DNA of 64,000 bases from Rhizophlyctis rosea. Lineage: Eukaryota > Chytridiomycota > Chytridiomycetes > Rhizophlyctidales > Rhizophlyctidaceae. Positions 2,453 to 57,079 of the stretch are shown here, piece by piece (the first letter of the stretch is position 1; each line of letters starts with the position of its first letter). The notes beneath the pieces were generated by a model, which saw only the letters and a program-made list of their open reading frames with translations, was not told where the DNA came from and searched no databases. The stretch covers positions 124,001 through 188,000 of the forward strand of contig JADGJC010000009.1 in assembly GCA_027596075.1 (NCBI GenBank), read 5' to 3'. The position numbers were made by a program, and so were the translations under genes.

Positions 2453-5400
2453 ATGCCCACACGTTCTTTACAGTCCTCCAAAAAAGAGAGGCGGATCCCG
2501 CCGGGCATTGTAGTCGTCCGTACTTGTCGCCCTGAACCATCTCTCTCCCGATACCCATACCCGCACCCATCTGAACAGCCGTCGTTCGAGGAACAACAGG
2601 AGAAGTTGAAGAAGGTTCAGAATTCGATACCATCCTTCAGTTTCGGGGCAGGCCCGTCGCCGGTTGGGACCACGCCCAGCACACCATCATTCGGCTTTGG
2701 AGGAAAATCGTCAGGAACTGGCAGCAATACTTCTCTACCAACATCGGCTTTCGGAGCGCAGGCATCCTCACCTGTCAACACGTCCAGCACCATACCGTCA
2801 TTCAGTTTTCTTACTGGCGCCGCGAATGCAACACCACCTTTGGCCAAACCTTTCGAAACCAACATCGGCCCCACCTCAGTTCCCGCAGCAACACAAGGCG
2901 GCATGGTCAGTCAAGATGCGAGTGCACCGGCCCCCAGCCCGTTCAACATTGCGCCTGTTGTTACTTCAACCACCTTGCCCTCCTTTGCTACGCCTACGGT
3001 TTCGGATGCCTCCTCTGGTTACAAGATGGTCTTACCGACATTCGGCGCGCCTTCTGGTACTGCTAGCTCAACGTTCGCCCTCGCATCGAAAAAAAGCGAC
3101 AGTACCAATCAGGATACCCCCGCGCCGCCGCAAATTGGGCAAGCAGTCGGAGGCAATGCCACTGCTATCAATGTCAAACCACCAAACCAGGATACCACCG
3201 CATCGTCTCCCATTACGTCCGCATCTGATGCCAACACTGGAATCGGAAAGGAAAAGGGTCCACAATCCATCCGTGCGCTTCACCCGAAAAACCCTGAGGA
3301 GGTTGCCCAGATTGTGAAAAAGCTACGCGGTCTCAATTCCAGTGTCGTGAACGGGAACGTTGTGGAGAATGACCCATTGGAGATGGTGCAGTCGCCACAT
3401 GGTACGAATTAGTGCTTTCAAGGCTTCGAAAGATGAGGCGTCACTAACTTGCAGCATGTGCAATACAATTTTCTGTCTTAGAAAACCTGACAACACTGAC
3501 AACTCTCTTCCTGTCAGCTGGCGCGAACAGTCGGAATTCAGAAGTACGGTTCATCGAAGCTGTGAAAGCTGGCGACTTTGAAGCTGTGAAGCACTTCCTG
3601 GAGGAGTTTACCGCTTGCATGGACCTTCCCATCGTCATCGCATCCGGCAATGGCCATACGGACATTGTGAAACTATTGTTGAAGGCCGGTGCAAACGTCA
3701 ATGCTTTCGAAGGCAAGGCGTTGCAAAGTGCCGTAGCTAGTGGTCATATTGACACTGTCAAAACGCTGCTGGCAGCGGGTGGAACGGCCAACTGGCAGGG
3801 GTGTTTGTTTGATGCCATTCACCATGGTCATCTCCACGTCGCGGCCACACTCTTGAATTGGTCACCAGATCAATCAGAAGAAGCAGACACTCCCAAATCA
3901 TCTTCGTCCCCCCCACTGGCCACGCTGGAAATCATCTGTTCGATTCGACCCCATCCACAGTCTGATGCATGCACACGACATTGGACTGGTCAAAGGAAAG
4001 CAAGTCATTATCAAGCGGGACGAATAACACACCGGAGATACGGTCATCTACATCGAAATTGACACCCAATGCCCCACCACAGCTGACTGGGCGGCACCGC
4101 TTGCTGCGAAACAACACCGCGTCGAAACCATCTACGTGATGGGGGAGCTGAGTCAGGGGTTTGTGATTCCGCTCGAGACTCTTCCCGACCATCGCAAGCT
4201 GATACTGGGGACGGATGTGACGCGAGCGCTGGGTATAAGCAAATACGTGCGTCCACCGACTGCGGCGTCGCTGAAGAGGGCATACGATGACATGATTGCT
4301 GGTGGTGGTGAAACATTGAAGGAATTCATGCAAGCGAGCATTAGGCGTCATGATGAAGCTCAGAAGTTGGTAAGTTGAAACGTGATGCGTTGTTGCCTGC
4401 TTTGATGCCTCAAACCTAACCCTGCATGTCACAGTGTAAGCCAAATGGCTTTAAGCACATCATTCCCATTCCCGATGGCGTGTTCAAACAAATTGAGATT
4501 CCGTATCACCTGTCGGAGAAGGAGCAGCGGCAAGCTATAAAGGAGGGTCTTGAAAGGAAAGAGTACCTCATGCTGGGAGGGGATGCTACCTCGCGCAGGA
4601 GGGATATCCTCTCGTACTCAGATGGATCTTTGCGTAATCCGGTGCATGGCGGTTATGGTGTGAACTATCCCTTCCAACCGGAATGGTGAGCTACAACTTG
4701 ATGGTTTGTGTAAATGGATCAAAGACTTACTGATTTCAAAATCTAGCAACAAGTCGGGAAAAACTGAACCCAGTTCGTTGGCTGCGGAGATTAAGGTATG
4801 AGGGAGTCCGAATGTGCTGTTGAATTCTCTATCTAATAATGTGGATTCAGGGAATTGTAACCGCAATGACAAACGAAGACGTTGAACCCGGACACAACAA
4901 TTTCCAAATCGGTGCTGACTGCGAGGGAGCCATCATCGATGTGTGGCAGGCGGTGGAGAAGGGAATCAAGCCTGAGAAAATGACCCAAGAAGACTTCGAC
5001 CTAGTCCGAAAGGTATGTATTTTGATTTACTTTCCGTCCGACAATCATCTTGATGCAAATTACCCACTCTGTTGAATGCAGTACATCCAGGAACACCCCG
5101 AAACAGTCTCATACCTACGTTGGAACAAGGCGCATCAGAAAGGAGAAATGGAATGCAAGTCGCACACTGTAGCAGATCGAATGGCTAATGCAGAAGCCGG
5201 TCCCTCAAACGCCAAGCGCATCAAGACAGCAAAGTGGACCAAAACATCGAAATTGTCTCCTGCTGTTCCTTCGAATTCGTCGGGTGATAGCGATACCATG
5301 GACGCCATCAACATGAACCCAACCCGCACCCACCCCATGTGCAGATCGCGTGCTGAGGCGACATATGGTGTGGCTTCTCCTACCTGTACGCAATCTCCCG

Positions 5401-5708
5401 CACCCGGCGCTCCACCACCGCGAACCACGCCCCGGACAGCCCTTCCTTCAATCATCTGCCCCTCCCTTGCCGCATCGACCAACCCCGCATTGGAAGAATG
5501 CGCATACGACGAATTGGCTTATGATGATCCCAATACCTACGCTGTGAGGATTACTGCAGATGAAACCTCACCCAGGCAGTCTTGTGTACGGAACAAGCCA
5601 AAGAAAAGGGATGCGGGGCGAAATCTGCGGTTGCGACAGCAGAGGAAGAAGGGGGAGGGCGAACGGGAGGAGGAGGGTGGTGGGGATGGGGATGCGTATG
5701 AGTGTTAG
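2453..5708 (+). pseudogene. RNase H family gene A: FG-rich region, ankyrins, RNA-ligase-type OB fold, RNase H (disrupted)
   Basis: Exons by eye: 2453-3401, 3518-about 4374, about 4434-4685, 4747-4795, 4851-5012, 5082-5708. Exon 1 (about 316 residues) is Ser/Thr/Pro-rich with repeated phenylalanine-glycine motifs (FSFGAG, FGFGG, SAFGA, TFGAP), like FG nucleoporins. Exon 2 has about three ankyrin repeats (GHTDIVKLLLKAGANVNA). It then gives an OB-like module with GDTVIYIEIDTQCP and GELSQGFVIPLETL, motifs of the Rnl5/DRB0094 RNA-ligase N-terminal domain. Exons 3-6 give RNase H: YSDGS, AAEIKG, GADCEGA, WNKAH and VADRMA hold the D-E-D-H-D residues. A basic KPKKRD/RLRQQRKK tail follows. Damage: about +4 bases near 3966-3972 shift the frame at the start of the OB fold, and a TAA at about 4023 follows, so the full fusion cannot be made from this copy as sequenced. 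Confidence 0.8.
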
Positions 5709-6579: not shown

Positions 6580-7665
6580 ATCCTACACCTTACCACCGTC
6601 ACCACGCACAAGTGTTCGAAGACGCAAAACATGTATGCACTGTAGGAACATGAAGCTCACTAGGGCCCATTGAATGGGTACCCCTCGAACCGTCTGCAGG
6701 TGTGAGTGGAACTGGCGGAGTTCATTTTGAAAGCGGGCGCTTTCCTCTACAGCCTCCACATACATGGGCGTAAGCCTATTGGGGTCTTTATTGAACACTT
6801 GCGTGGATTTGGTGAAGGTGGGAGAAGAGGGTGATTGATAAGTGGGGTGATGGATGAGGAGCTAGGAGGGAGTTTCGAACATGCGGATTGGATATATATT
6901 GAATCTCTTCCACTCGGGACTGACTCGATGCCTGAGTGGCACCGTTCGACCCAGCAAACCCCATTCATCAATTCATTGGGTCACTTGAGTGCACCCCTGA
7001 TTGCGGAACTTCTGTTTGGCATTGTGACGGATCCAAAATCGCTTCCCTATACCTACCTATGCTGTGCCTTGTATTCAATGATGGCGGATGAATTGCAAGT
7101 CGTTTATCCACCGCGTATTGGCAACTATCAACAGCCACCATTCCACAGCCCGATTGTAGAGTGAATGCGGCATCTACCATCCTCCATTCGTTACCATTGA
7201 AGAGGCAGAGCCACCTTTAGCCACCACTTCCGTTATGATGACGAGACTGACATAGATCGTCGTCGAGCGCCAGTGGAGGTAAGCTCCACCCAGAGACTCA
7301 CGGCCATGAAAGCCACGAGTCTGTAAACAAAGATTGAATCTGAAGGTTGTTACATTTATGGTCAGATTGCGCTTTCATGACTGTGCCACCACTGCCTGGC
7401 TGCAGCATGCGGCCAAGCTATTTTTGACCCCATCTTCTTCCCCGTCTTCTTCCGGCCTGATGTTGATCGGCAGTTCCAAATGACCTACCTCCCATCGTCA
7501 TCCGTCACGACCTTTCCGCACTACCTTTCTCCCATACCGTTTTGAGCCACGGAGGTGTACTCAACTTTTCTCATCTGTTTTGGTTCCTCCTTCTACCGAA
7601 GTCTTCACACTCTTCACTTTTCACCCTCGTGCTTACTTTCACCGTGACCGAAGTAAGTGGGTGTG
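6580..7665 (+). repeat. Dispersed repeat R2, copy 1 (downstream of gene A)
   Basis: The first 200 bases (ACCACCGTCACCACGCACAA..., then CACTAGGGCCCATTGAATGG and GTGTGAGTGGAACTGGCGGA) are nearly identical to 15545-15770 and recognisable at 45783-45990. The second half (GTCTGTAAACAA near 7320, TTTATGGTCAGATTG near 7360, GAGCCACGG near 7543) matches 16145-16470 and 21430-21735. R2 ends at a short conserved exon, ATGACCGAA in other copies. Here it is GTGACCGAA (7644-7652), so the start codon is lost. The acceptor and next exon (CAAACCGTTTCCTAC near 7762) are still visible. Confidence 0.75.
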
Positions 7666-8700: not shown

Positions 8701-9712
8701 GGGGGTGAAGCCTATACCCGCAATCGCATACTAAACCCAAAACCTCGAACAACATATCCAATTCGCCCAATCACGTCTCGAGCCTCGGTTCGCGCCTCCG
8801 CACCCGCTTCTTGACAATCTCTTGGCATATTATTTGACGACAATGAGGTCGATGAGATGATTGAAGGGTGGTTGGTGCAAGGGGTGAGGCCAGCGTCCAG
8901 TGCACGGAATAGAAAACCACGACGAGTCTTCAGCACCCGCCCCCAGGCAAGAAGCACGACGACGTCATCCAAAAAATCACGGAATGACTCCTGAACTCCT
9001 CCGCGAGCAACAAAAGTTGTAAGTCTTCGCCCACATCCGCTTCATCCTCTCTCATTCCCTTCAAGCCCTCCCACATCCACTCCGCCAACCCTTTCCACAC
9101 CCAAAACCCAACACATCGCCAACCACGACGAATTCCGCCTGGGAAGATTACCACTCCTATGGTGCTAGAAGGCAAGAGTATGATTCGTACCTTGATTCGG
9201 TGAAGCGGGCGGCGAGTGTTACGCCGACGGAGGGGTCTGCGGGTGTGAGTTCAAGAGTGACGTTGTCGCCGACGAGGTCGGAGGGTCGGATTGGGGGTTT
9301 GGAGTGGGATCACAGTAGGAGGGAAATGGGGGGTGGGGGTGCGGCGGTACAGCCGGAGGGTGGTCGGAAAGGGGTGGGGGCGTGGTTGGAGGGAGGCGAG
9401 GTGGGAGGGAGGGGTGTGGCTAAGATTAGTCCATGTAAGTTTGTACTCGCTGTGGCTTTCGGGATGTGAGTTGTCAGTCAGTTGGAAATGAGTTGGATTA
9501 TGGGCGGTACCATTGCTTTTCTTGTTTCTGTCAAGAGGCGGGGCATATGGACCGGTCTTCAATTCGCCTGTGAAAATGTCCGCGAAAATTGGATTCACAT
9601 GGCCAATTCAACAAATTGCGAACTTCTAATCACATGTCCCACCCCTCACAGTACCAACCGAAGACGTAACAAGGGCAATACTCGCCGCCCCACATACAGA
9701 CCCCCACCCGCA

Positions 9713-10390
9713 TCCGTATCTACCGCAACAGCCTCTCCGACGGCCAATTCGCGCCCGTGCGAGACTACGAAGTCGCCGGCATCCTCGCCGCCTGTCGTCA
9801 AGCCAAAGTCGAGCCGAAACTGACGTACGTCGTCGCGCAGAGGAGACATAGCGCGGTTCATCCCGCTTATGGGGCAGGGTGATCGGAGTGGGAATGTGCA
9901 GGCGGTGACGGTGGTTTATACGGGGGTTGTGCATCTTACGCATTTTGGTGAGTGGGATTTATTGTGATTAGCATTTTTGGGGTAACATCCTGACGCGGTC
10001 TCTGAGATGCTAGACTTCTATTTGAATGCGCATGCTGGGTTGCAGGGGACCAGTCGTCCAACGCATTGTAAGTGTTCGTTAAAGCTCAACCTTCCTAAAT
10101 GCTCAACCTTCTGATCTTCATCAAACCAGACCACGTCCTCTGCGATGACTTTCACTTTATCGCCGACGACCCTCCAAGACCTTCACCTACAAGCTCTCCT
10201 ACCTCTTCCCGCGCTGCACTCGCTCCGTCAGTCTCTGTGCTCCGGTGGTACGTAATGGCACAGATCGCCATTCATCAAGCATCTACTGACACGGTTACTG
10301 TATCACAGTACCAAGCCCCTCGCCGCCCAATGCAAACGCACCCATCTCAAAGACCCGGACTGGTCCGAATTCGGGATCCAGCAGCTCCAG
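9713..10390 (+). pseudogene. Argonaute PIWI-domain fragment, broken
   Basis: Readable pieces in order: FAPVRDYEVAGILAACRQAK, LTYVVAQRRHSA, then after a 2-base deletion PLMGQGDRSGNVQAVTVVY. An intron (about 9950-10011) follows, then DFYLNAHAGLQGTSRPTH, another intron (about 10070-10129), and YHVLCDDFHFIADD. A second frame shift leads to KLSYLFPRCTRSVSLCAPV. This is the canonical PIWI RNase H-fold order of eukaryotic Argonautes. The conserved TVVD aspartate is TVVY here. The histidine in SRPTH remains. At least two frameshifts and the catalytic change make a working slicer unlikely. PAZ and N-terminal parts are not visible upstream. Confidence 0.8.
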
Positions 10391-10479: not shown

Positions 10480-10600
10480 GTTCGTATCCGCTGCGCCATC
10501 GCTGTAGCCTACAAGGACGTTACGCTCAGCACGCAATTGTTGAAGGGACAACCTTTGATCTTTTGGACTTTCCGATCTTCAGGATGGTGGGTGTTGTTGT
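10480..10600 (+). pseudogene. 14-3-3 C-terminal remnant, copy 2
   Basis: The frame AIAVAYKDVTLSTQLLKGQPLIFW at about 10498-10570 corresponds, with substitutions, to the 14-3-3 last-helix region ([18 protein letters not shown]). It is in the same position relative to R1 as the fragments at 842 and 27135. It is more diverged than those two and would be hard to recognise on its own; the nucleotide similarity to copies 1 and 3 (CAATTGTTGA.GGACAACC) supports the call. Confidence 0.55.
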
Positions 10601-11095
10601 GTGGGCAATGAAGATTCTTGGATCACTTGTCGGCGAATGCGGTACGTATGTTAGCATGTCACTCATGATACTTGATGTTCATTGTCTGCAGTGCAGCTAT
10701 CGATCATAATGCCATAGCCGAATCAGCGTAAGACATGATTGTGGGAACGTATGTCCCACGTCACGACAACAACGCACGAAGTTGTGGAGAACATAATATT
10801 ATATTCGGATACCATGATATATGTTACAACTCATTATTGGGCATTATTGGGACTATGCTATTATTTGCGAGTCGGATGTGCTCCCCTCTGTCTTTGCAGG
10901 GGCTTGGGACCCTCCACCATCCGCTTGCGAGAAGCGGGAGGTGGGCGACATTAGAGCTCGAAGTAGGTTGAAGTTGGTGTTGATGGCGGCTCTGCTGTAT
11001 CCCATTGAAGGAACTCGTGACTGCATTTGAACAACCCGTTGTGTGTGTCGAAATGTTGAAGATGGAGGTGAATGCTTCTTGGGAATCTCAAACTC

Positions 11096-11147
11096 CTTTA
11101 CCTAGACGCCGCGGGGCTACTTTACACCCGAATCCGCCTAGGTAAAG
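11096..11147 (+). ncRNA. Conserved R1 hairpin 2 (copy 2, first instance)
   Basis: Arms CTTTACCTAG (11096-11105) and CTAGGTAAAG (11138-11147) pair perfectly over 10 bp. Inside, CGGG and CCCG close a loop with GCTACTTTACA. The same fold, with different but still paired arms, occurs at 11223-11270, 28040-28101, 39745-39804 and 57936-57987 (- strand). Changing arms with kept pairing indicate selection on RNA or DNA structure. The RNA class is not known to me. Confidence 0.55.
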
Positions 11148-11222
11148 AAGCCCGAGCTAACTTGGTGTTGGTGGTGAATGCTGTTGTTGAGACTGACGGC
11201 TTCTTGGATATCCCGAGCTCTG

Positions 11223-11270
11223 TTACTCAAACGTCACCGGGCTACTTTACACCTGCACCCGCTTGAGTAA
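11223..11270 (+). ncRNA. Conserved R1 hairpin 2 (copy 2, second instance)
   Basis: Arms TTACTCAA (11223-11230) and TTGAGTAA (11263-11270) pair over 8 bp around the conserved ACGTCAC..GGGCTACTTTACA..CCCGC interior. The inner stem is weaker here than in the other instances. It is a tandem duplicate of the hairpin 75 bases upstream, but with the arm sequence seen in copy 4 rather than that of its neighbour. Confidence 0.5.
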
Positions 11271-12499: not shown

Positions 12500-14930
12500 A
12501 TGGAGGATATTGATCCTATCAGAGCGCTGCTACCTTTGGATGACCATGATAGAAGTTTTGCTTTCGTTGCTGCAGCAAGGACAGGAAACTTGACCGCCAT
12601 CCGTTCATTCATTCGCGAACATGTTGACGTAAACGCCGGCGACGGTCTCGCACTGATACGGGCGGGCGAGGAGGGCCATGTGGAAATCGTCAAAGTGCTG
12701 TTGGAAGCGGGTGCAGACGTTCATGCTCTCCGTGGGAAGGCTCTCAGGGCTGCTGCCGGAACGGGCAAAGTCGAAGTCGTAAAGATTTTGCTTGAAGCGG
12801 GGGCGAACGTGCATGCAGCAGAGGAAGGCAGTCTGTTGGGGGCAGCTAAGGAAGGTCATCTCGAAGTTGTGAAGGAACTGTTGGATGCCGGGGCCAATAT
12901 CATGAGCGCCGTACGCTCTGGTCTGCTGGTCGACGCTGCACTTTCCGGCAATCGTCAGTTGTCACAGTATCTTTCAGCCGAGTATGCCAAACGCGTCGCG
13001 ATCAGGAAGGCTGCATCGGAACCCCTTGCAACCATATCGATTATCCAGGCCATCCTTCCACATCCGCACACAACTTCCTTGGAAATAGCAACAGTCTCTG
13101 GGTGCCGAGTCGTAATCCAGTCTCGCACATTCAAAGTTGGGGAATCCGTTGTCCATATCCGCATCGGTGCTCAATGTCCGAAAGGAGCTGAATGGGCAGA
13201 AGTACTTGAACCAACGGATTACTGCGTGCTACCGAATGTCTTCCTGGGCGTGGCGAGCGAAGGAATACTTGTTCGGATGTCCAAGCTCAAGGGATTGGAG
13301 AAATTGAGCCTATTGTGTGACGTTTCACCGTATCTGGGCATTACGTCTGCAGCGAACGCGAACGGTGCGAAGCAGTCTTTTGTTGAGGATGAAGATGGCG
13401 ACTTTGACACTCCCGAGGAGTACTTGAAAGGGGCATTGAGACGTCATGATGCTCTGATGAATTCGGTAAGTTTGACAGGTTTGCGCATTCGTGCTTACCT
13501 CTCATTTTGGATATAGTGAAACTAATCTCCTACTTTCTCCGCAGATGATCAAAGACGGGCACATATGCCCTTTTCATCAAAACGTGTTCAAACGCATTGA
13601 AGTCCCGGCTGGACTCTCGCTGCAGCAAGGGAAGGACTACATAAACAATCATTTGGCGTTGAAGGAGGCTGTTGTTCTTTGCCGGGACAAGAGCGTTGAC
13701 CGGCAAGAAGTGCTTGCCTTCTCTGACGGATCTGTCATCAAGGGTCAGGGCGCGTATGCCGTGGTCTATCCCTTTCGACGTGAATTGTAAGTGTTAGGAT
13801 CATCCTGCATGCTGCGAATTGCTTTGATCTAACCTCCTTTCTTCAGGACGCACGCAGGACGTTCTTATGCGGATAGCAATACGGCTGAATGTGCAGTAAG
13901 TTCAAGACCAAGTCGGAACCTATTTGGGAAACAATAAGAGGGATGGATATTTGATATTCGACCATCATGCAGGGAGCGGTCGACGCGATCACAAACGCAA
14001 CCATTGAAGAAGCAACGGACCTTCACCTCGTTGCTGACTCCCGGTACGCTCTCAAAGCCGTCTGGGAGGTTTTTGAGTACGGGTCCCGTCCAGAGAAAAT
14101 GGACCTGCGCGATTTTGAGGCTTTACGCACTGTATGTACAATGGAATGATAGCCGTAGTTGGATCAAGTACACATGTCCTAATCTCTTTCGCATTTCATC
14201 ACAGTGGTTCGATTCCCCGAGACGTCGCGGTATGAGAGTCTACCTGCACTGGATCAAAGCGCATAAAGGAGGAATTATGAAGAGTGAAGGACACCACGAA
14301 GCGGATGCCCTGGCCAATCAAACGGCGAAAGAAGCTGCACGTGGTACATATGCACCCTATGCAATGGCCGGACCATCTGGGAGTTCGCCGTCGCCATCAT
14401 CTTCATCAGATTGGAACTCCTTACCGAACAATGCTTCAAATCCTTCTACAACACCTACGCCGGCAAATTCATCCATATCTCCTAGCCCCACCGTCTCCTC
14501 AACAGCACCAAACGCGGCTACCGCGGGAGTGACCCTCCCAATGACCGAACCCTCTCTCGCCGTTCCGTCTCATGCATTGGAACCTTCACAATCTCTTGTG
14601 AATCCGTCAGTGCCCATGGCCCATCACACGACCGACCGTTCTCTCGCTGCTCCGTCTCATGCACCGGAACTTTCACAATCTCTTGTGAATCCGTCAGTGC
14701 CCATCGCTCACCCTCGGGCTCCAGAAACATCGCAACCGGATCCGCCTACGACAACACCAGTGCCAATGTCCAAGTTGGAACGGAAACGTGCCAGGGAGTC
14801 GGTTCCGGAGGGCGAGGGGGGTGGATCAGGGTCGGTGAGCCGTCCGGGAAAGAAGCATCGCATGCAGGAGAGGAAGGAGGGTGGGGTGGAGAAGGATGGT
14901 GGTGATGAGAAGGATGGGGATGTGTTGTAA
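12500..14930 (+). CDS. RNase H family gene B: ankyrin repeats, RNA-ligase-type OB fold, RNase H (intact)
   Basis: Exons 12500-13465, 13545-13786, 13847-13895, 13973-14131 and 14205-14930 join in frame to 713 residues; all introns are GT-AG. Residues about 20-165 are five ankyrin repeats (EGHVEIVKVLLEAGADVHA). Residues about 178-300 align with the OB-like module of A and D (KVGESVVHIRIGAQCP) but lack the SQGFVIPL motif. Residues 323-380 are the pre-RNase H segment shared by the family. The RNase H active site is complete: D383 (FSDGS), E417 (TAEC), D441 (VADSR), H492 (WIKAH), D506 (EADALA). The tail is Ser/Pro/Thr-rich, holds a tandem repeat of about 29 residues (14550-14720), then basic clusters KLERKRAR and GKKHR and an acidic end. 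Nuclear RNA:DNA-hybrid processing is inferred, not shown. It is the best preserved ankyrin-OB-RNase H copy here. Confidence 0.8.
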
Positions 14931-16466: not shown

Positions 16467-16467
16467 C

Positions 16468-18330: not shown

Positions 18331-18332
18331 AG

Positions 18333-29233: not shown

Positions 29234-32200
29234 ATGGGGAGGACGCGGCAGTCAAGTGCCCGCTCCAAGAGCCGTTCCCATCCTTACTTGCCTTCGAGCC
29301 TTGGGCGGCTCGGTCGTTGGTATGAGCGGCTCATACTTTCGCCATTCAATTACGTTCGAAAACAGCTCACCATCACCTCGACACCCGCACTCCCGTCCCT
29401 ACCCTGTGAATTCCCCACCTTCCCCGCACTCCCACCACTCTCTCGACAAGACGTGCAGTCTTTCATCCGTTCGGCACAACAAGGCAATTTTAAGCCCGTT
29501 CAGGAGTATATATCGAAGGGCGGGGATGTGCATGTCGCAAACGATCTGGCATTGATTCTCTCAAGTCGGGACGGGAACGTCGAGATAGTCAAAATATTGC
29601 TAGAAGCAGGGGCAGACGTTCATGCTGAATCGGAACAAGCTTTGAGGTTTGGGGCGGCCGGCGGACATATTGAGGTAGTAAAAGTCTTACTGGAGGCAGG
29701 GGCGGATGTTCATGCGAGGGATGATGAAGCCGTTATCACGGTGGCGATGAACGGTTCCGTTGAAACCTTACTTGAGCTAGTAGCGTGTGGTGCTGACGTC
29801 CAGGGGGCGATTACGGCTGGAGCGTTGACGGCTGCGGCCATGAACGGACAGCTGGCGATTGCTAAGATACTCTCCGAAGCGTCGTCGTGGGGTGAGGGAG
29901 CGGGTCATGCCGAGTTGATTGGAGCATTTACTGTAAAAGCCCGCAACAGCAACCCAAAAGAAATGGTAGAAGAAGTTACTAGTCAAATGCCGGGAGCCCA
30001 TAGCGTTGTAATTCGGCATATACTGAATTTCGGGGAGGCGGACGTTATCGGGAGTAATAAGTGTGTCATGCGACTCTCGGGCAGCGTGGGGGATTTACAG
30101 TACCTGTACAATTCGCCGCGTCGGGATGGAGAGGAAGTCTTTTGGTCAAGCAACATGGGTAAGCAGCAAGCTGTTGATTCAGATTCATCAATCTTCCACA
30201 TTTGTGGTACTCATGGCTTTGCCGTCAATTTCAGGCGCCGACCAAATCTACGCGTTATGGGCTTGCGGCGTTTTTGACAGGCGCATCAACACAGCTGCTT
30301 CCGCTTCCCCTACAGCTCCCGCTCCTCCAAATTCTTCCGTTCCCAAATCTTCTTCTACGAATTCCTCTCCGTCGGCGCGCACTCAAGCTGCACCGAAATC
30401 CTCCGCTTCGAATTCGGCTTCATCGTCTTCACATTCCTCGTCCAAACCTGCTGCAAATGCATCCTCTTCATCGTCATTGAGCCATAAGCAGCCCAGTTCA
30501 TCTGATGCGGATGGGGATAAGGACCGGGAAGGATCGATGACGGTGGAAGGGAATGCTGGTTGTTCCATTGTTACCGGTGGACAACAGAATGGGAAGTCCA
30601 ATTCAGCGGTGGTGGCACACGAACGGCAAACGACTGGTGGGAAAAGGAATACAGCAAAGTCGACGGGCGTAACGATAGTCGTGAAGGAGCGAAGTTCGAG
30701 ATCTCCATCGTCGTTGACGAAGAACGCGCCAAACTTTTCGGGTTCGGGACGGAAGTCGTTGCCGTCAAGCAACAGGGCAAAATCGGCCGGGGTCAAGATA
30801 GTTGTCAAAGAGAGAGTTTCACAACCTCCTCCATCATTGTTGCCGAAGCCTGGGCCTGCGGAATCAAAGTCGTTGCCTTCGGTGGATCCATTGAGTCCCA
30901 AGTCTTCGGAATCAAAGTCGTTCTTGCCGCCGGTCGATCCATCGAGTCTCAAGTCTTCGGCAATGCCTACACCTTCACATGGGCACGGACATAAACAAAT
31001 GCTTGAAGAAACAAGTGACGACGAAGCCGCGGTTCTTGCAGCTCATCTATCGCAAGTGATTGAAATGCATCAGGCGGACCTGGTAGAGGTGGGTTGTCAT
31101 TTCGCCGCTTGGCTTGAATGGTTGGAACTCATTCTATGTTATATCACGCAGAGAAAACAGACACCGACGCAAAAGCACCCCGACTCGAAGCATTTCCTAC
31201 CATTTAGTGATGGGATTTTCACTACCATTCACGTCCCGCACGGTGTAGATGTGGGCGAAAGACATCGGATGATCATTGAGGGGCTTGCGCGGCAGGAAAG
31301 ATTAGTTCTTGGGGGAAATGCTGAGGCGCAAAGGGAGTCGACGCTCATGTATGGAGATGGCTCCTTGCGAGGTCAGCCATATGGGGGATATGCAGTGCAT
31401 TGTCCGGCTCGACTTGATCTGTAAGTTTGTGCATTCGCGCCAAAGGAAGGAAGAGAGTACTTTATCTGACCAATTGCATTACAGTGACGAATCTGGGAAA
31501 ACAGTTCCGAATAGTACGTCTGCAGAAATAAAGGTATGTGTGTTTTCGAAGTCTCATCATGTTGAATATGGATCTGACTTCGAAATTCTTAGTCAATCGT
31601 TCAGTCCATCCGAAAACGATCGGTACTGCCGGAGCTTACGGATCTTGATGTCGTCAATGATTGTATGCCGGCGATTTTGGCGGTGCACGATGCAGCAACG
31701 TTGAAACGGAAAAGTTCATTGATGGATATGGATGACTTTGATGAGATTGGAAGGGTACGTCATGCACAGCCACTCTTGGTTTCCTTGATTTGATGTACAG
31801 TTCCTCATTATCTTCCATTCAGTTTGTGAATGAAAGGGGTTCGAAACGGTTGTGTATCCATTGGACGAAGGCTCATGGTAGTGGGGAGATGTTCAACCAT
31901 CCACACGAGGTCGCTGACACGATGGCGAAGAACGAAGCTGCGCCGCCGGACGCACCACCACTTCCGATGCCACCGAAGCAGAAGCCATCGCAAACGACCA
32001 ATGGCACAAGGGCGTACAATACATGGAGCAAGAAGGTGAAACAACATATTGTTGTTGGTAAAAAACTCATGGAGCAACGACCTTCATTTTCGGTTTCTAC
32101 ATCTGGACCGTCATCCATTGCTGTACCGGGAGCGCATGTTCCGCCTGCTGGTGTTGCGACAACGACTTCTTCGCAAGCACCATCTACACGGGCGAGTACC

Positions 32201-32521
32201 TCCCTCCCGCATTCCATCCAATCCGCGAATACAATCCTACCCAAACGCATCCGTAAGACAGCGATCCGCGGCCATCCGGGCGGGGCGGGTGGTGGGCAGA
32301 AGTCGACTGGGCTTTCTTCTATGCGTGATATGACGGATCGGTTGTTTAATAGTGTGACGCAGCTGGTGTTGCCGATTGGGTTGCGGGAGAGGGTGGTTGG
32401 AACGAGGATCCCGAACGGAAGGAAAAGGAAGAGGATGAATGGGAGTGGGGATAAGGATGGTGGTGCGGGGAGTGAAGGTGGTGGTGGGAATGAATCTGTT
32501 AAGGGGACGGGAAGTGAGTGA
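29234..32521 (+). CDS. RNase H family gene C: ankyrin repeats, C/D-specific domain, RNase H (intact, no clear OB fold)
   Basis: Exons 29234-30158, 30235-31088, 31152-31420, 31485-31533, 31593-31754 and 31823-32521 join in frame to 985 residues. About five ankyrin repeats occupy residues 75-215 (DGNVEIVKILLEAGADVHAE). A following block (VIRHILNFGEADVIG...LQYLYNS...EEVFWSSN) is shared only with gene D. Where the others carry the OB module, C has a 280-residue Ser/Lys/Pro-rich linker with three similar KSAGVKIVVKER-type units. RNase H residues are D662 (YGDGS), E697 (SAEIK), D722 (VNDCM), H771 (WTKAH) and D785 (VADTMA). The tail has PKRIRK and GRKRKR clusters and a Gly/acidic end. The start is the first ATG in frame; the frame is open for about 78 codons upstream. 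The 63-base intron at 31089 is itself in frame, so retention is possible. Confidence 0.8.
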
Positions 32522-35197: not shown

Positions 35198-35329
35198 ACA
35201 CCGTTATGGCTGGGAAATTCACCAATGGAAGTGTAACCACTGGTGGTGGTTCTGGCACCACATGCAGCCGGGGTTCTATTTGCACAACCAATGGTACTAT
35301 CAATGTTTGTGAGTTCAGTAGCAATCATC

Positions 35330-36940: not shown

Positions 36941-36944
36941 AGTT

Positions 36945-40840: not shown

Positions 40841-43800
40841 ATGACGTCATCATTGCCCTCCAAATTTCTTGCGCGGCTTTTCGGCAACGTTGCCTCAGCA
40901 ACTAGCACGGCGGCACCAGCAGGAGACAGTGACACAGAGAACGGAGGAGCAAAAGAAAAGGAACTTGAAGAGCCCATCTCCACTGTTTTGGAGAACGGAA
41001 TAGGTACTTTGAGCTACCATATCTTCACCTGTACAACCCTCACCCATTTGAACAGGGCCTTCCACTGCGCGTGGTTCTGGAACGAACGGCTATGTCCAGC
41101 GCAATCTATCATCACTCCGCCCGCGGGACAAGCAGCCTCACCAAGCTCCCAACTTCTCGGACGAACGTGGACCTCCGTCATTAATTCAAAAACCCAACCA
41201 AGATATCCTCCTCCACGAACGTAAACGTCAAGTCGAAGTTCAATGCTTGGAATTACGGGAAAAGTTGGAGAGCCAGAATCTTCAAGAGGAGGAGATCGAG
41301 GAGAGGGTGTCGGCTTTGCGGGAGAAGCTGCTGAAAAACTTGCAAACGGTGACTCAGGACGAGAAGACGTTGAAGGAGCATCAGGTTCTTCAACTAGCAG
41401 CCGAGGTAGAGGAGGGAGAGGAGTGTAATGAGACTAAAAGCTCTGACGACCAGAACTTGGAAACCTCGCATTCCCTGAATTGTCTGAAAGGTATGAGAAG
41501 GGTCGGCTTTATGAGGTGCATCCACGGCAACTGATTTTGTCAAATATCCTCTTCATATAAGTCGTCGAGCTTCTACTGTCAGAGTCCTCTCTCGACAAGG
41601 AGAAACAAAAGGCGTTTTTCAACGCTTGTGCCTCTGGAAACACGGCAACGGTGCAACGACTAGTGAAAAGCGGCGCAGACGTCCACGTTCTTGATGAATT
41701 CGCTCTCATCATCGCAGCAAGGAACGGGCACACGGACGTGGTCAGGTTGCTATTGGAAGCGGGTGCAAACTGCAATGTTTCTTCGGATCTGCCGCTATTG
41801 GTCTCCGCTACTGGCGGGCGTGTCGAAGTCGTCAAGCTGCTACTTGTCCACGGTGCAAATGTTCACGCACAAAACGATGGTCCTCTGAGACATGCAATCA
41901 TCGGAGGCCATACTGACGTTGTCCGAGAACTCATCGCTTCCGGTGCTCGCGTCGGCGAGATCATCAACGAAGGAGGGATTTCATCGGCCGCTGCAGAAGG
42001 TCATACCGAAGTGGTGAAGCTATTGTTGGAGGAGTACACTAGTATTTTAGGAAGGAACAAGCCCCATTGGGCGGATCTTGTTGGAATTGTTCGTGTGCCG
42101 GTAGTACGGGATGACAAGGCACTGCAGCGGGAACTGTGCGTCTGTTTCAAAGGTGCTGAGCATACAATTGCCATCAAAGAAGCTGTCGTTTGGACGACCG
42201 ATACCGCAGATGACGGCAAATGGGATATTATGATCCGGATCGGGGGCAGCAAAGCAGATCTCCAGTTCATATCCAGCACCCATCCAAGCTTGTTTTGGTC
42301 CCACGATGAGGGTATGTGATCTGATGACCAGCAATCATTATCAAGGTGTCGGAAGAAACTCACATTTGTGTCTTTCTCTTTGCAGCTTCTCTTCCGTTCC
42401 GCGACTCCTCAAGAAGAAACATAAATGCCTGTCAGAAGTAAAAGTGAACGTGAAAGCAGCTGCGTCAGTGGCAGCCTCGGAAGCCGCGCCGGACGTGACG
42501 TTCGATACTATGTCGGTTGATACGTCGGTGGCTCTTGCCACAGTTCAGATCATACATTCGGTCAATATTCATCCGGCGGATTCTGCACTGGACATCGTAT
42601 CAGCACTCGACAAACAAGTCGTTGTTCCGCACGACCTATATCATGTTGGAGATACAGTCATTTACATCGAAATTGATAGCCAATGCCCTGCTTCAGCTGA
42701 CTGGGCAGGCCCGCTGTCTACGAACCAATACCGCGTCGATACCATCAAGATGAAGGGGGAGTTGAGTCAGGGGTTTGTGATTCCGCTTGAGACTCTGCCC
42801 AACCACCGCAAGCTGATCTTGGGGACTGATGTGACGAATGAGCTTCAAATCACCAAATACGTTGGTTCTACGGCAGTCAATCCTACGGCGGCGAGTGGTC
42901 CTGCACAGATTACGCCCGTTGATCCCGTGACGGAAACATCTTTGCCTGTGCTGGATTTGTCAAAGTTGAGTCGGCCAAGTCTGAAGAAACAGAAGCAAAA
43001 GGGCAAACAGAAGGAAGTGAACGGTGAAGGCTCAGGAGGAGGAGATTCATCCCTATTGCACATTCGACTGCAAGACCATGTGGATCAACAGAAAACGGTA
43101 AGTTGAATTCGTTTCCACTCGCCTTAACATAGTTTACTGATCCCTGTTTATGTCATAGTGCAAAGACGAACACTCGCGGCACCTAGTTCCAATACCAGAT
43201 GGCTTCTTCAAAAAGATCACTGTGCCTACTCACCTAACAGATGCACAGCAACGATCATTGATCAAACTGGGTCTGGAGCGGAAGGAAGCTCTGGTTTTTG
43301 GCGGCGATGCCGCGGCTCAGCGTGATGAAATTTTGTGCTACTCGGACGGATCGTTAAGAGATGAAGATCATGGTGGATATTGTTTGATCTATCCGCATCG
43401 CCCTGAGCTGTAAGTTCGACTTAACAATTGAGAGGAAGTGGTGATTTCATCTGATCTTCTAAATTTAGGAATCAGTCTGGACCTTCAATGCCGGATAGTG
43501 TGGCCGCAGAGATCAAGGTATGTGTTGCTTCACCAACCTTTAAATGAACTTTACCTAATATGTGAACATCAGGGCTTGATCAAGTCCATAACAGATCCCG
43601 GTGTCGTCTCAGGTCAAAACAACAGGCGGCTCAAAAGTGATTGCATGGATGCTATTTGTGACGTTTGGGAAGCCGCTACAAAGGGCAAGCGGTCAGCAAA
43701 AATTGAGGAGGATGACTTCAATCTGCTTCGCGAGGTACGCCATTGAGATGCTTGGAATCTGAGTTGATTTGTGCAACTTACCTAAGTTTATGTAGCATAT

Positions 43801-44830
43801 GCAAAAACCTGAACGTCAATCCGAGGTTTTCTACATCCACCACGTGAAAGCCCATAAAACTGGGAAAATGTACTCGCCGGCTCATGCTGCGGCTGACAAG
43901 GGAGCTTATGCGGCAGCGGGAGTGAAGCTGTCAACTCCATACCCATTGCCTAAGCTGTCGTCATCTCAGCTGACCTCCTCTCCGCCAACCTCCTATCCGT
44001 CGACCTCGTCTCCATCATGGGCAGAATCAGAATCGCCGGAAATTTAATCAGCATTTTCTGATCCATCAGATTTTGCCGTTCATTTGACTGAAGACCCGAA
44101 CACGCAACAATTCCCGCGCATGACCGTGAACCGATTGAACCAACAACAGTCGACAGGAGGAGGTGGAGGACCCACAATGCAACCCTCTCCGTCCGAAAAG
44201 CCTTCGATTCCAGCGTCTTCGAGTCCATCATCTTCGGAAAAGCGCAAAGCAGACGATGCCTCGTCTTCAGCAAAGAAGGCAAAGAAGGAAGTTCATCGTT
44301 CTCTTCCTTTACCGACTTCGGGGCTTCGCATGGATATGGTGAACCCTTCCTCCGCTCCAATGCAGGACCAAAAAAGAAAGCAGAACGATGAAAATGCTCA
44401 AACGGATTCCCAACCATCGAAAAAGTCCAAAACGACGCCGAATCCCTCTTCTCCTACCCGGAACTCCATTCCCGCACCGTTGCTGTCGTTTCAGAATACG
44501 AGTGCTAAGGGACCGAAGAGCCGGAACTCGGTTAGCAGCAAAAAGCGGTATTGGGAGTCCAAAGGATCTGGGGGTTACGGTGGCGGTGGTGGTCAAGGAG
44601 CTGGTGGTCAAGGAGCTGGTGGTCAATCGGTGCGCGAATATGCTTATGGTGGATACCATGGCGATTGGGGAGGATACTACGGGGGCGGCGGCTATGGCGC
44701 TGGTAGTTATAGCAGTGGTTGGTATAATGGTGAGGGGTATGGTGGTGGTATTACGAGCGGTGGTGGGTATGGTGGTGGGGGCTACGGCGGTGGTCGGTAC
44801 GGCGGTGGTGGAGGGTATAGTCGTTTTTGA
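40841..44830 (+). CDS. RNase H family gene D: coiled coil, ankyrins, C/D domain, OB fold, RNase H, NLS and Gly/Tyr-rich tail (two frame problems)
   Basis: Exons 40841-41003, 41056-41490, 41562-42311, about 42386-43097, 43159-43409, 43469-43517, 43573-43734 and 43796-44047. A short N-terminus leads to a coiled coil (about 41230-41430), five ankyrin repeats (41630-42030) and the block shared with C (KAVVW-like...LQFISS...LFWSHDEG). The OB module is the best in the window: VGDTVIYIEIDSQCP, VDTIKMKGELSQGFVIPLETL. RNase H has D (YSDGS), E (AAEIKG), D (KSDCM), H (HVKAH) and D (AAADKG). Problems: the well-formed acceptor at 42385 puts the OB exon one base out of frame with the ankyrin exon; an acceptor at 42345 would restore it but leaves only a 34-base intron. 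A TAA at 44045-44047 ends the frame, yet the same frame stays open to 44830 with basic NLS-like clusters (KRK, KKAKKE) and repeated GGYGGGG units, as expected of the family tail. Confidence 0.7.
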
Positions 44831-49865: not shown

Positions 49866-50417
49866 GGCCCCATTAAAGTCATTTCAGGCATGCCATGGTA
49901 GGGCATCCATGGTGAGGAGAACGAGTACGCAGCGTTGATCGCTGTTGGAATTATGGGATTTTCAGTTTTGTATGTTGACATGAATACAATCGTTGTCATG
50001 ACGGGCGCTTCGTGCGATGGTACAGTACACTGGGTGGTGCCAAGTTGTTGCAGACGATGGGGGGTGAGCCGTGAAGACGATGGGGGGTGAGCCATTTACC
50101 ATAGGTCAGATCACTGAATCATTGAGGAATACGCCACTGCACAACGGAGGTCAATGATTTCTCTAGTCTTTGGCGTGCACATGTAAGGTTCGCAAGATGA
50201 CTCAATTGAAGAAAAAATATAATTTTGCTCGTGAACCGGGGGAGGGTATGCTCGCTCGCTTTGTGTTAAAAGCACCATAACACTTCCCCCAACAACCGGA
50301 CACCATACAATCAATCGAAACTGATGTCTTCCAAATTGTTCTGAAGTGATACGATTGGCTTTACAAATTGAGATGGAGGCGCCCATACCAGCGATCAACA
50401 CTAAACCCAATGCTAAT
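49866..50417. other. Convergent intergenic region between the AA9 and F-box genes
   Basis: Holds the 3' flanks of two convergent genes. GACGATGGGGGGTGAGCC is directly repeated (50053-50070 and 50076-50093). No gene recognised. Confidence 0.5.
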
Positions 50418-52024
50418 CTACTCATCATCATCATCATCAATCTCGCTGTCGCTGTTCTCCTCCCTACTACACCGATACCGACAAATGCCCCGCAAACCTC
50501 CCTGCTGCCTCCCATCATACACCTTCACCTTCGGACCCCAAATACTAGAAACCATGCTTGCATCGTCCTCATCCAACCACACAGACAACACTACTTCTTC
50601 CAACGAAGGCTTCCTCATCAAGCCGTCATTAATCGCCACATGATCCCAATCATGAACCGCCATTCGCATCTCCTTCAGCTTTCGGCTGGGGATGCGGGTT
50701 AGGATGGCGTGGAAGTGGCGGCATCCGAATGGGTTGGCGGAGGCGAGGTTGTCGTTTATGCTAAGGAAGGTGAGTTCGTATAAGTGGGGAAAGACGAGGG
50801 AAAAGTGGTCGATTTGAACGTCTCCATCCATTCTTTGGACGTCGATGGATAGGGAGGTGAGAAATCGACTGGTGATGTTGGGGAGGGTGCTGAGGACGCC
50901 GGGCCATGGTCCACGCCAGGAGAAGCTAGTCAGAGTCTGTTGTGTAAAGGTATGGACGGTCGGCACTTCTCTACAGAAAATATCCCCTCTGAAGATTTTG
51001 GCGGATTTCAGGTTCGGCATGGAGGCCGCGAAATCGCGGAATTTGACGGATGGGTTGATTCTCAATGATTGCAGTGAGTCGAAACGGATGTCGGCGGGTA
51101 TGTATGCGTTGAAGCTAATTTCTAGGACTAGGTCGCGAAGGGACGATTGGAGGAGTCGCATGAATTGTAAGATGTGGCAACTCCATGTCGACCTTTCCAT
51201 GCCGTACAGCTTCAACGTTCGGAGACCCAAAGGATGTCCAGTTTTCTGTGCTGCATCGACAAACATGCGCGCCACCGTTTCCACCATGAACCGGTCTGCT
51301 TCGCCAGAACGGGTCCCATCAATCGAAAGCTGTCTGAGTCGCGTCAAATCCACCATATTGAAAGTCTGTACTAAGTTATATCGACAGTGGAGCGGCTCCT
51401 TCCTTGCGCGCGCTGGAACAGACCGAGGACGGAACCAGAAGCTCAAGCGTCGGACCGATTCAGTGCGACCTGGGTCTTGTAGGAAGATTTCGTAGGCGTT
51501 ATGATTGCAGTCAAGTGGGATGGGCTCATGGTGGATGGAGTATTCTTTGTCTTCGTTGCGTCGGTGGTCCTCGAAAAGACCGTCACACTGTGGGCACGGC
51601 GGCTTGACACGGGATTTCGGGATGTAATTCTTGATATCAAGACAGTGACCTTCCCGCAGTTGGAAGGCCGTGGCGCGGAACGTTTTGCACACTGAGCGTC
51701 GCGAGTTAGTGACACAGTTCAAGAGCTTCCGTGCTATCCCTCGCCATAAAATACGTCCAATGAAGATAACACACCTTGCGCCAAATGCAGCTCATAAGGC
51801 AACCCATCACCTTCCCTTCTGCGCACCGGCGAAACTGCAAACGACGCCCTGATCACGGGACCCAGACGCGGTTGAATGAACTCAAAGATGGCCAAGAGAA
51901 CGTGTTCTGGTACGGCGGTGATGTAGCAGAAGGCGGTGTTGACGGGGCGGTGCGCGGGTAAGCCAGTGGCGTGGGAAGGAATAGGGAGATTAGAGCCTGT
52001 TACGTTCAGTACGATGGGTCGCAT
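50418..52024 (-). CDS. F-box protein with leucine-rich-repeat-like C-terminus, copy 1
   Basis: Read on the - strand: exon 1 52024-51775, intron 84 bases, exon 2 51691-50418, total 507 residues. The F-box is near residues 33-55 (VPEHVLLAIFEFIQP) with the second half across the intron (LHLAQVCKTFRATAFQLREG). A CPQC..F...H motif follows (residues about 110-125). The rest has loosely spaced leucine-rich strands (LRQLSIDGT, LRTLKLYG, LRDLVLEISF, LQSLRINP, LTSFSWRGPWPG), typical of fungal F-box/LRR-like adaptors. The end is acidic (SEIDDDDDE). Expected role: substrate receptor of an SCF ubiquitin ligase; the target is unknown. It has an intact paralogue at 58791-60424 with the same intron. Confidence 0.75.
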
Positions 52025-53174: not shown

Positions 53175-53501
53175 AGCATTGGACATTTTATATATTATCG
53201 AACTTGGTTAGCTAGAGGTGCCAGGTTTTAGAATCTCAGTTTGAGTCTGTGCTTTTTCTGTTCTTTGCGGCACCCTTCTGTTGCGGAAAACAATTAGTCG
53301 AATTGGGAAATCTCCTGAGCCCAAGATACACCACAGTACCAGCAAATGAATGACGCAACCATCTTTATATACAGGCCAAGATGTCGTTGTCTATTGTCTC
53401 GAAAACAACAAGCCAAAGAAAAGCATCTGACCATAGCGAAGAGTCCCCATCCAACATAAGATGACTTGCAATGCTACTCCTACCCGCCCCTTTCATCCCC
53501 A

Positions 53502-56500
53502 TCAAGTCCCGATGCCTGGAACGACCGCAGTACCTCCCCGAAATTCACCGGACCCACTAGCGGCACCACCATCAGCCTTCAACAGCCTACCGCCCGTGAA
53601 CCCTGCCGCCCGCAATCGACTGCCAACTTTGCCCGTCAGTAGGTGAGTACAAATGCCATCTGCAATATTATTGCCGACACTCTCCCGAACACCTGTCTTG
53701 TGGGAAGCGACCCATCTGAAACGCAGCGTCACATTCGGGAAGCGGGATTTGAACTGGATCAACAGGGAGCGGAGAATAGTCATGTCAGTGAGGTCTTTGA
53801 TGACAAGACATCATAGAAGAGCACCTCACACTTACATTGGTGATCTTCCCGTATGTCATCAACGGCATCGAATTTGGGCGCGCAATGTACCATGCGTCGT
53901 AATACTTGACAATTGCTGGGATACAGTCAGAGATGATGTCAATCACCATCCCGTCCACTATCTGTCGGTTTTGCAACGCTTCGACGATTGCCTGCATAGT
54001 ATGGAATGATTGATCATCACGCTAAAAACGTGCAAAAAGACAAAGCAATGAGATGTAAAATGACGTACTGTCAATTCGCAAAGGCCGGACGGTGCTCCTG
54101 GAAGCCTGTCGCACATGTATCTGCAAAGGAATTGGGGAGTCAATTTGCCATTAAACGTCAAGATCTTCCGAAGAAGGTCTTAGCAATACTTACGAGTTGC
54201 TGGAGGGGAGGTATGCTGCCCAAACACCCATTTTATTGCGTCGCCCTCCATCGGTACAAAAGACCTCATGCAATCCCAGCGCGCCCTTGCAAGCATCATA
54301 GTTAATTGAGAGAATGGGCTGACTGGCACGGAACGAGTATGCATACCATCTCAAGCGGCCTCTTAATCATGAGACCCTCTACAATCCGTTCATGCCTCGT
54401 GCTCAGTTTCAGTCCACTACTGAATGTGATTGGCGTAAAGTAATTGTGATGCGGGGCAAGCACGGTGTTGCCGTCATTCAGTAAAGCCTGCACACCGGAA
54501 CTTTATTTAGCATATGCATCGTGAACAGGAGACGCGTCGATTCCAATTGAAACCTTCACCTGTTTCAACGCTTCGGGATTATCGAAAACGATATCTGCGA
54601 ACAGGTCTTCCTCCTCGTGTTCATCATCCTTCTTCTCCTCAAAGTCTCTGTACATATTCCCCAAAATGTTTCATCAATGCAGTATTCATGCGGGTAATAC
54701 TCCTGTGATACTCACCGACTCCTCTTCTTACTGCCGGGTACGATGCTCAGACCAGCTGTGGAGTCGGGCGATTGATCTCAGAAACAAATGATGCAAGCTT
54801 CAAGTGGTCGAGCACTCAAGGAAAGTCAAGACTTACAAGGAGCGTCAGGAACGTCAGGAAACTCCTTCATATCAAACATGATAGCCATGCGGCTATATTC
54901 TATCAAAATGGAGAGGGTATTTGTCACAAGATTGTCTGGATATGGATAATAATCGCTGGATTCTTGAGTTCCTTACCAAACGTTCCCTCCACGACCTATA
55001 CCGCAGCTCTTGTCTTCTCCAAGGGCATCTTCGCTTTCCCACCCACGAATCAGCACAACGCAACGAGCCGTACTTCCTCCGACCTCGATAATGCAAATGT
55101 CTAACAACGACACTCGATGCCCCGCGACCAAATCTCGGACGAGGTAGGCTTCCATTTCGGTCTTCTCGTTGAGATATGTCGAAGGGATGGAGACATATCC
55201 GTATCGCTCCTCCACAGCTTTTTGTCCCTTCCCACGGTCCAAAGCCTTTGCCTGAATGATACACTCCTCCCGATCCCAACATCGCAGTTTCCTCAAATTA
55301 TCAAGGAAACTTCCGACAAAAGCCTTCAAATTAACCCCCTGTAACGTATTCACCGTCACAACTCCACGAGACTCCACCACCCCAACGTCATTCGGACCCG
55401 CCAACACGCAACCGGCAAAGTCCCTATTGCCTTGGCTTGCAGCACGAAGGGTCTCCACACCGTCACCATATGCTCCAATGGTACGTAGAGTTCGGTACGC
55501 TTTCCGTATCGTCTCAGCATACCGATCGTCCGCCGCCATCTCTTGCTGATTGCCAACTATAATGAGGGCGTCCCAAGGATATTTGATACCGGGCTCGTCG
55601 ACGAGATCTTTCAATCTAATATCCTGCGCAAATGACACGCAGTATGGCAATGACTCTGCATCGTGCAACTCAATCTGGAGGTTCCAAAGCAACGTCTGAT
55701 CGCATGATGGAGTGACCAGTATGGCGATGATAGTCCGCTTCAAAGTGCGTAGAAAAGACGTTGGTGGTGCAGAGTGAGCTGACAGGAGCGCACGAGCTTG
55801 TGGGAGCCGATTTCTTTGGACGAGATGATAAACGTGGCAGAGGAGGACACGGGTGCGGACATGGTCAATGGAGGTTCTGTAAAGGCTAGCGCAGAGGTCG
55901 GCAACGAGTTCGGTGGGATCGTCGAGAACTACGGTCAAAGTGGGGTAGAGGTTTCGGACGTGGGATTCGACGGTTTGAATCGAGATGTCGGATTTGTAGT
56001 ACAATCGTTCCACCCGGCGCAACTTCGTCAAGTCAACATATTCTTGATGGCCGATGCGCTTGAAGTACTTTTGTGCCCGCACGATGATGGCGTACAGACC
56101 ACCCTCGTCGTTCAAGCGGCTGAAGTAATCCAAAGTGTGAGGGTCGATGTTCTGCAATGATTTTGTGAATTCATCGTCGATGCGGTCCACAAATGATCCA
56201 AGGTTTCCACGGATCTGCAAAGGGGTCCCAGCATTCGCTTTCTGCAAGTTGGATCAGATCAGCAAGGTTACTCGCCACTCGCATGTAAACGTCATTGCTC
56301 ATACCACTTCCTCCGCATTGTCATCTACTTCTTCGTCAATGAAATCGGAAATGGACAGATGCGCGTTCTCCTCCAAAAGGGTAAAAAGCTCGTTGATCTC
56401 CATCAGTGTACTGATAACATTTCCCATCTCAGTATGAGTTCGGTCAGAACTATTCCGTACGATAGCTGTCACCTTCGCCACATTTCCATGGACATGAAAC

Positions 56501-57079
56501 CAGTGGTGGTAGGGGTGAAATCGAAGCGGGCGGGAATCAACACCAATAGGACCTTAACCTTTTGGAATGGGTTCCGAGCAACTTCCAAAAGTTTCCTCAA
56601 GTTTGCCAATTGCGTAACTTTGTCGGTGCTCTGTGATGCATTCAATATATATACGCATCAAACCTTAGGTACCCAATATGCCTTACCTTTTTACCACGAG
56701 CTTCCAACAATTCGCGCAACTTCTTGGACAAAGTTTTCGGTGTAGGCTCGAATACCTTCCCACCCTTTCCAAAAACAGAGCAGCTTTCGTCCGTTATAGC
56801 ACCATCCGTCTCAGTAGCCGGCGTATTCTTTCCTTTGTCACCAGTCTTAGGTGACCCATCCGCTTCCGTTAATGCGTCCACGGCCTCCGTTGCAAGTGTA
56901 AGGGCTGCCTTTCTCACAATCTCCGGGTCTGTGTTCAAATCCTTGAGAAAGCCAACTAGTTCTGCCACGGTGGGCGTGGGAGAGAGCGGGGAGGTTTGGA
57001 AGGGGCTGGTGGGACGCGACGCGGTGGGAGAGGTGGTTTTTGGTCGAAAAAACGCCCAAAAAGATGATAGTGACGGCAT
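53502..57079 (-). CDS. RNase H family gene E: eIF3c-like segment, unrecognised region, RNase H (intact, 12 exons)
   Basis: On the - strand, exons 57079-56687, 56630-56473, 56410-56305, 56241-54977, 54892-54837, 54755-54716, 54647-54560, 54487-54347, 54285-54194, 54120-54069, 53991-53836 and 53753-53502 join in frame with GT-AG introns to 932 residues. Residues about 115-390 match the middle of translation initiation factor eIF3c (KLRELLEARGKK, VARNPFQKVKVLLVLIPARF, FVDRIDDEFTKSLQNIDPHT, RTRVLLCHVYHL). Most of the real eIF3c, including the PCI domain, is absent. Residues about 390-700 are unrecognised, with EVGGSTARCVV and a PGSKKRSR NLS-like patch. Then come the family pre-RNase H segment and RNase H: D761 (CTDGG), E795 (CELT), D819 (ISDC), H867 (VASH), D881 (NIADG). 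Introns inside RNase H match A-D in place and phase. It is a different N-terminal fusion to the same module. Confidence 0.8.

What the first reader, a model, noticed from the sequence alone, without database searches (positions are those of the whole stretch)
2453..57079. Five-member family of RNase H proteins with swapped N-terminal modules in one 55-kb region
Genes A, B, C, D (+) and E (-) all encode an RNase H fold with complete D-E-D-H-D residues, a common pre-RNase H segment (FxP...IxEGL), a basic/low-complexity tail and the same intron map. N-termini differ: FG-rich plus ankyrin plus OB (A), ankyrin plus OB (B), ankyrin plus a new block (C), coiled coil plus ankyrin plus new block plus OB (D), eIF3c-like (E). 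I know of no described protein family combining ankyrin repeats, an RNA-ligase-type OB fold and RNase H. An R-loop, RNA:DNA hybrid or retroelement control function is a guess.
Basis: partly seen in the sequence, partly recalled or inferred. Interest (0 to 1): 0.93.

Follow-up and report, generated by a model that had tools for sequence, protein, structure and literature searches.

The report
Nuclear RNase H proteins wearing host-gene fragments
A soil chytrid fungus carries a small family of RNase H-type proteins whose front ends were partly built from copied pieces of its own unrelated genes (a nuclear-pore protein, a splicing factor, a translation factor, an RNA ligase), a natural case of new proteins being put together from spare parts.

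Summary
The window is from the chytrid Rhizophlyctis rosea. B, D and E match Pfam RNase_H over its cut-off, C below it, A not at all, yet all five align and keep D-E-D-H-D and the same short Glu-bearing exon. Four more loci on three contigs belong to the family: three keep all five residues, one has a stop before the last Asp.

Where a source was found for N-terminal parts, it is another gene of the same genome, copied as DNA: a RanBP1-domain FG protein (A, 93%), a cwf21 splicing factor (D, 90%), eIF3c with introns (E, 89%), and RNA-ligase OB patches (A 90%, D 88%). The FG fragment also lies in a Myb-like frame elsewhere, so capture is not special to this family.

Gene A's OB fold is frame-broken; fusion in E is unproven; there were no transcripts. 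Protein searches found no relative outside R. rosea but also missed known members, so narrowness is weakly supported. Most likely: nuclear RNA:DNA-hybrid nucleases with newly assembled N-termini. A new variant of a known kind.

The parts
2453..5708 (+). Gene A (deposited as HDV00_012423, 926 aa): first 55 aa of unknown source, FG fragment, ankyrin, broken OB, pre-RNase H segment, RNase H, basic tail
2623..3377 (+). FG fragment in A, 93% DNA identity to the RanBP1-domain FG gene at C68:9551-10299; another copy at C460 is 86%
4000..4250 (+). OB patch in A, 90% to the RNA ligase gene on C179; holds a TAA, with a frame change just upstream
4435..5200 (+). A pre-RNase H and RNase H exons: 4435-4685, 4747-4795 (Glu), 4851-5012, 5082-
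12500..14930 (+). Gene B (HDV00_012424, 713 aa), ankyrin + OB + RNase H + basic tail; exons 12500-13465, 13545-13786, 13847-13895, 13973-14131, 14205-14930; open frame
29234..32521 (+). Gene C, ankyrin + block shared with D + Ser-rich linker + RNase H + basic tail; exons 29234-30158, 30235-31088, 31152-31420, 31485-31533, 31593-31754, 31823-32521; open frame
40841..44047 (+). Gene D (deposited as 'RNA-splicing factor', 908 aa): first exon of unknown source, cwf21 fragment, ankyrin, block shared with C, OB, RNase H
40994..41393 (+). cwf21 fragment in D, 90% to C11:87215-87617
42648..42862 (+). OB patch in D, 88% to the RNA ligase gene on C179, next to OB sequence of much lower similarity (gene-conversion-like)
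53400..57079 (-). Gene E candidate: leader exon, eIF3c fragment, Catalase_C-like stretch, NLS-like/acidic segment, pre-RNase H and RNase H exons 54487-54347, 54285-54194, 54120-54069, 53991-53836, 53753-; fusion not proven
55823..56772 (-). eIF3c fragment in E, 89% over 955 columns to C534:72631-73581, introns included
1218..1761 (+). Copy of a dispersed repeat found 5' of the family genes (others 10494-11591, 20716-21364 with no RNase H recognised after it, 27748-28573, 39440-40242, and 57934-58181 on the - strand); not specific to the family

Best explanation
Shown: a diverged family of RNase H1-fold genes in R. rosea, at least nine loci, five of them here, with D-E-D-H-D kept in eight of nine. 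Shown: parts of the N-termini of A, D and E are DNA copies of fragments of other genes of the same genome. Inferred: the proteins are nuclear (basic tails, NLS-like and acidic stretches, judged by eye), cut the RNA strand of RNA:DNA hybrids, and the N-terminal pieces act at most as tethers or addresses (nuclear pore, spliceosome, translation factor, nucleic-acid binding). Inferred: fragments arrived stepwise by ectopic duplication, and the OB patches by gene conversion from the RNA ligase gene.
For: RNase_H matches in four of five; D-E-D-H-D in 5 of 5 in the window, in L040, L041 and L042 read exon by exon, and D, E, D, H in the C35 locus; shared exon map. Best relatives of known structure are E. 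coli RNase HI and RT RNase H domains, weakly (0.0035; 0.0025). Donor matches at 88-93% DNA identity, donors named by Pfam, introns copied in E. Synonymous distances to donors differ: FG 0.10, A-OB from the stop on 0.36, eIF3c 0.39, which suggests more than one event. The deposited models of A and D span fragment and RNase H, that of B spans ankyrin, OB and RNase H.
Against: No transcript or activity data. A has a broken OB and no Pfam RNase_H match; the C35 locus has a stop. Pairwise dN/dS of captured parts (A-FG 0.57 against C68 and 0.71 against C460, eIF3c 0.36, A-OB 0.21, D-OB 0.42 over 180 codons at dS 0.97) mixes donor and copy and does not show that the copies are constrained. Both structure models are poor (mean pLDDT 45.0 and 46.5). 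The fold search with the second gave RNase H domains or reverse transcriptases at ranks 1-25, but with best E 0.03, TM-scores of at most 0.31 by query length in those rows, and none at E <= 0.001. In some searches hemoglobin and myoglobin chains reach similar E-values to some RNase H chains.
Confidence: 0.6

Rival explanations
1. The N-terminal fragments are neutral passengers: a duplication-rich region dropped pieces of other genes next to RNase H genes, gene finders joined them, and only the RNase H core (as in the short members on C61, C346 and C35) matters.
For: Many other dispersed duplicates lie in the window: 45 and 49 matches for two 20-kb pieces. The FG fragment lies also in a Myb-like frame at C460. 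A's OB is broken. E's RNase H part resembles short members with their own NLS-like/acidic leader (by eye).
Against: B, C and most of D have open frames with GT-AG introns through to RNase H; B's OB, 33% identical to the ligase over 139 codons, is still open.
Confidence: 0.27
2. A gene-capturing transposon (Helitron or Pack type) made and spreads these chimeras, RNase H being its cargo.
For: Fragments of several unlinked genes copied into one region, with introns in E; a repeat lies 5' of 8 of the 8 members compared (the C35 locus was not compared).
Against: Five of five other repeat copies examined have no RNase H by profile in about 5 kb. [quoted passage not shown] Element ends, target-site duplications, helicases and transposases were not searched for.
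Confidence: 0.12
3. The RNase H domain is a domesticated retroelement RNase H rather than a copy of RNase H1.
For: RT RNase H domains are among the best relatives of known structure.
Against: No reverse transcriptase match in the proteins and parts scanned; E. coli RNase HI scores as well. No tree was made.
Confidence: 0.15

Closest known systems
RNase H1 (type 1 RNase H)
   Same: Domain match and D-E-D-H-D residues.
   Different: No hybrid-binding domain match in what was scanned; has a shared pre-RNase H segment, and ankyrin and OB in some members. A separate gene on C124 looks like the ordinary RNase H1, judged by eye.
DRB0094-type RNA ligase (TIGR02306)
   Same: N-terminal OB fold, 88-90% DNA identity over 215 nt in D and 251 nt in A.
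   Different: The RNA_ligase domain found in the ligase gene L007 is not matched in B, D or A; scores are far under the TIGR02306 cut-off.
Gene-fragment capture by Helitrons or Pack-MULEs (recalled; abstract of PMC4289320 read; other papers seen as listing only)
   Same: Fragments of several host genes copied into one place.
   Different: No element ends or transposition genes shown, because not tested; [quoted passage not shown]
Integrated decoys of plant NLRs (recalled; search listing only)
   Same: A constant part with variable domains resembling host proteins.
   Different: No NLR part recognised; no pathogen effector known.

Membership tests
Type 1 RNase H | RNase_H domain match | tested here: met
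   B, D, E over the Pfam cut-off, C below it, A none
Type 1 RNase H | D-E-D-H-D active site | tested here: met
   5 of 5 in the window; 3 of 4 elsewhere, the fourth has a stop before the last D
Type 1 RNase H | Cleaves RNA in RNA:DNA hybrids | not testable with these tools
   needs an assay
Eukaryotic RNase H1 | N-terminal hybrid-binding domain (recalled feature) | tested here: not met
   no such Pfam match in B without its tail, or in deposited D and A; C and E scanned in part only
DRB0094 RNA ligase | Nucleotidyltransferase domain | tested here: not met
   PF09414 matched in ligase gene L007, not in B, D, A
Retroelement RNase H | Linked reverse transcriptase | tested here: not met
   no RT match in the proteins and parts scanned
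Helitron | RepHel helicase and terminal structure | not tested
   not searched

The most novel reading that the evidence does not exclude
The locus is a workshop for address tags or baits: RNase H effectors repeatedly take up fragments of the cell's own RNA-handling proteins (nuclear pore, spliceosome, translation initiation, RNA ligase), so that hybrid-cleaving activity is placed at those machines, or so that parasites attacking those proteins are bound by a nuclease, much as integrated decoys do.
Probability: 0.06. Interest if true: 0.87.

Novelty: new variant of a known kind. Interest (0 to 1): 0.55.

Why it matters
It shows stages of new multidomain proteins being assembled inside one genome: the likely donors are still there, the copied stretches differ in divergence, and the catalytic residues stay constant. 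If the fusions are expressed, it would show how an enzyme can be re-addressed by fragments of housekeeping genes. Ankyrin-OB-RNase H was not found as a described architecture in three paper searches (searches returned no paper; one search listed six, none about it by title and start of abstract).

Tried and rejected
Structure prediction of B whole and of the pre-RNase H/RNase H part, three rows each: low confidence, weak support only. Upstream repeat as a family-specific promoter: rejected, since 5 of 5 other copies examined lack RNase H by a profile that found all three of L040-L042; at least six more copies were not fetched. Catalase gene on C235 as DNA donor of E: no DNA match, only 32% protein identity. 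Donor for B's N-terminal exon: none; for C not searched, as window 20001-40000 and 60001-64000 were not searched at DNA level. Ankyrin donors: 226 matches from 150 of 443 candidates scored, not resolved. Assembly artefact: unlikely, as donors differ by 7-12% and sit on other contigs (inference). Third protein was the wrong strand and is ignored; the right frame was scanned. Papers: abstract of PMC4289320 read; others seen as search listings only; searches returned none.

Full report
Where it is. B is identical to the deposited R. rosea protein HDV00_012424, 713 aa; A is HDV00_012423 (926 aa) and D is deposited as 'RNA-splicing factor' (908 aa). The window is contig C624:124001-188000 of a 44.1-Mb assembly in 634 contigs.

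RNase H core. I joined exons by hand using GT-AG sites. B, C, D and E match Pfam RNase_H (1.1e-13, 2.1e-4, 9.2e-7, 1.2e-6; C is below the curated cut-off); A does not, nor does its deposited protein. In the alignment of all five the residues D, E, D, H, D are among 16 invariant columns. D, E, D and H line up with E. coli RNase HI and the last D with the RNase HI chimera 1jl2; these matches are weak (0.0035 and 0.0079), and some globin chains score about as well. The Glu lies in an exon of 49 nt in A, B, C, D and 52 nt in E. A six-frame Pfam search of the genome listed 6 places, none in the window, presumably because these introns cut the domain up.

Family size. Single-protein searches of the genome found the window's genes plus places on C61 (two) and C346 and C35. 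Read exon by exon, both C61 loci and the C346 locus keep D-E-D-H-D. The C35 locus keeps D, E, D, H and then has an in-frame TAG before the last D; its two supporting matches were weak (E 0.235, and 9.1e-4). So 8 of 9 loci are complete for the five residues. The tool says such counts are lower bounds. These four loci look like short forms: an NLS-like, acidic or coiled leader followed by RNase H (by eye).

Where the N-termini come from. A 2623-3377 is 93% identical to a gene on C68 whose 706-aa frame has FG repeats (by eye) and a RanBP1 domain; a second copy (86% DNA) lies in a frame with a weak Myb match (under its cut-off) on C460. D 40994-41393 is 90% identical to a cwf21 gene on C11. E 55823-56772 is 89% identical to eIF3c on C534, introns included. 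The OB patches of A (251 nt, 90%) and D (215 nt, 88%) match an RNA ligase gene with OB and RNA_ligase domains on C179 and end within 2 nt of each other on it. In D the OB sequence next to the patch is much less similar, which looks like gene conversion (inference); A and D are 82% identical to each other there, so exchange between them is not excluded. B's OB is 33% identical to the ligase over 139 codons, hence probably older. Synonymous distances to the donors are 0.10 (FG, 250 codons), 0.36 (A-OB from the stop on, 76 codons) and 0.39 (eIF3c frame, 177 codons). The first 55 aa of A and the first exons of D and E have no source found.

Against a tidy story. Gene A's OB has a frame change and a stop; the deposited model avoids them with a 145-nt intron. 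In E the eIF3c and Catalase_C-like part may be a separate gene or relic upstream of a short-form RNase H gene. Captured parts show pairwise dN/dS of 0.57 (FG against C68; 0.71 against C460), 0.36 (eIF3c), 0.21 (A-OB) and 0.42 (D-OB, flanks included), which mixes donor and copy and cannot show constraint on the copy. The structure models are poor; the fold search of the second lists RNase H domains or reverse transcriptases at ranks 1-25, with best E 0.03.

Relatives elsewhere. Three protein searches of 5.8 billion sequences, limited to relatives sharing exact 5-residue words and to set lengths, returned only R. rosea proteins: B alone at E <= 1e-3, D and A at E <= 10, none for E. They are not very sensitive: B's search did not return A or D, and D's did not return B, though all are deposited. 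That the family is narrow is therefore only weakly supported.

Most likely working. A nuclear RNase H acting on RNA:DNA hybrids, with N-terminal parts newly built from copied gene fragments that may tether it. Shown: domain, residues, exon map, donors. Inferred: activity, location, tethering, and the route of copying.

Noticed in passing
20716-21364: A copy of the upstream repeat with no RNase H gene recognised after it, possibly a lost member.
   Followed up: partly
6589-6814, 15549-15777, 45773-46006: A shared repeat 3' of A, B and D (A/B 93%), also on C121, C421 and C292.
   Followed up: no
50413-51944 and 58786-60377: Two related stretches with long minus-strand frames (67% DNA identity over 1618 columns); F-box/LRR-like by eye; the first has no Pfam match at E <= 0.01.
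   Followed up: partly
61415-62697 (-): Snf7 gene pieces: 8.1e-18 for 61415-62002, 0.0014 for 62128-62697.
   Followed up: partly
18828-19936, 16889-17388, 9688-10390: Further DNA duplicates of other contigs (C89 82%, C64 90%, C301 78%), contents not identified.
   Followed up: no
C460:35836-36391 (L064): FG fragment inside an open frame with a weak Myb-like match: perhaps another chimera, outside the family.
   Followed up: partly
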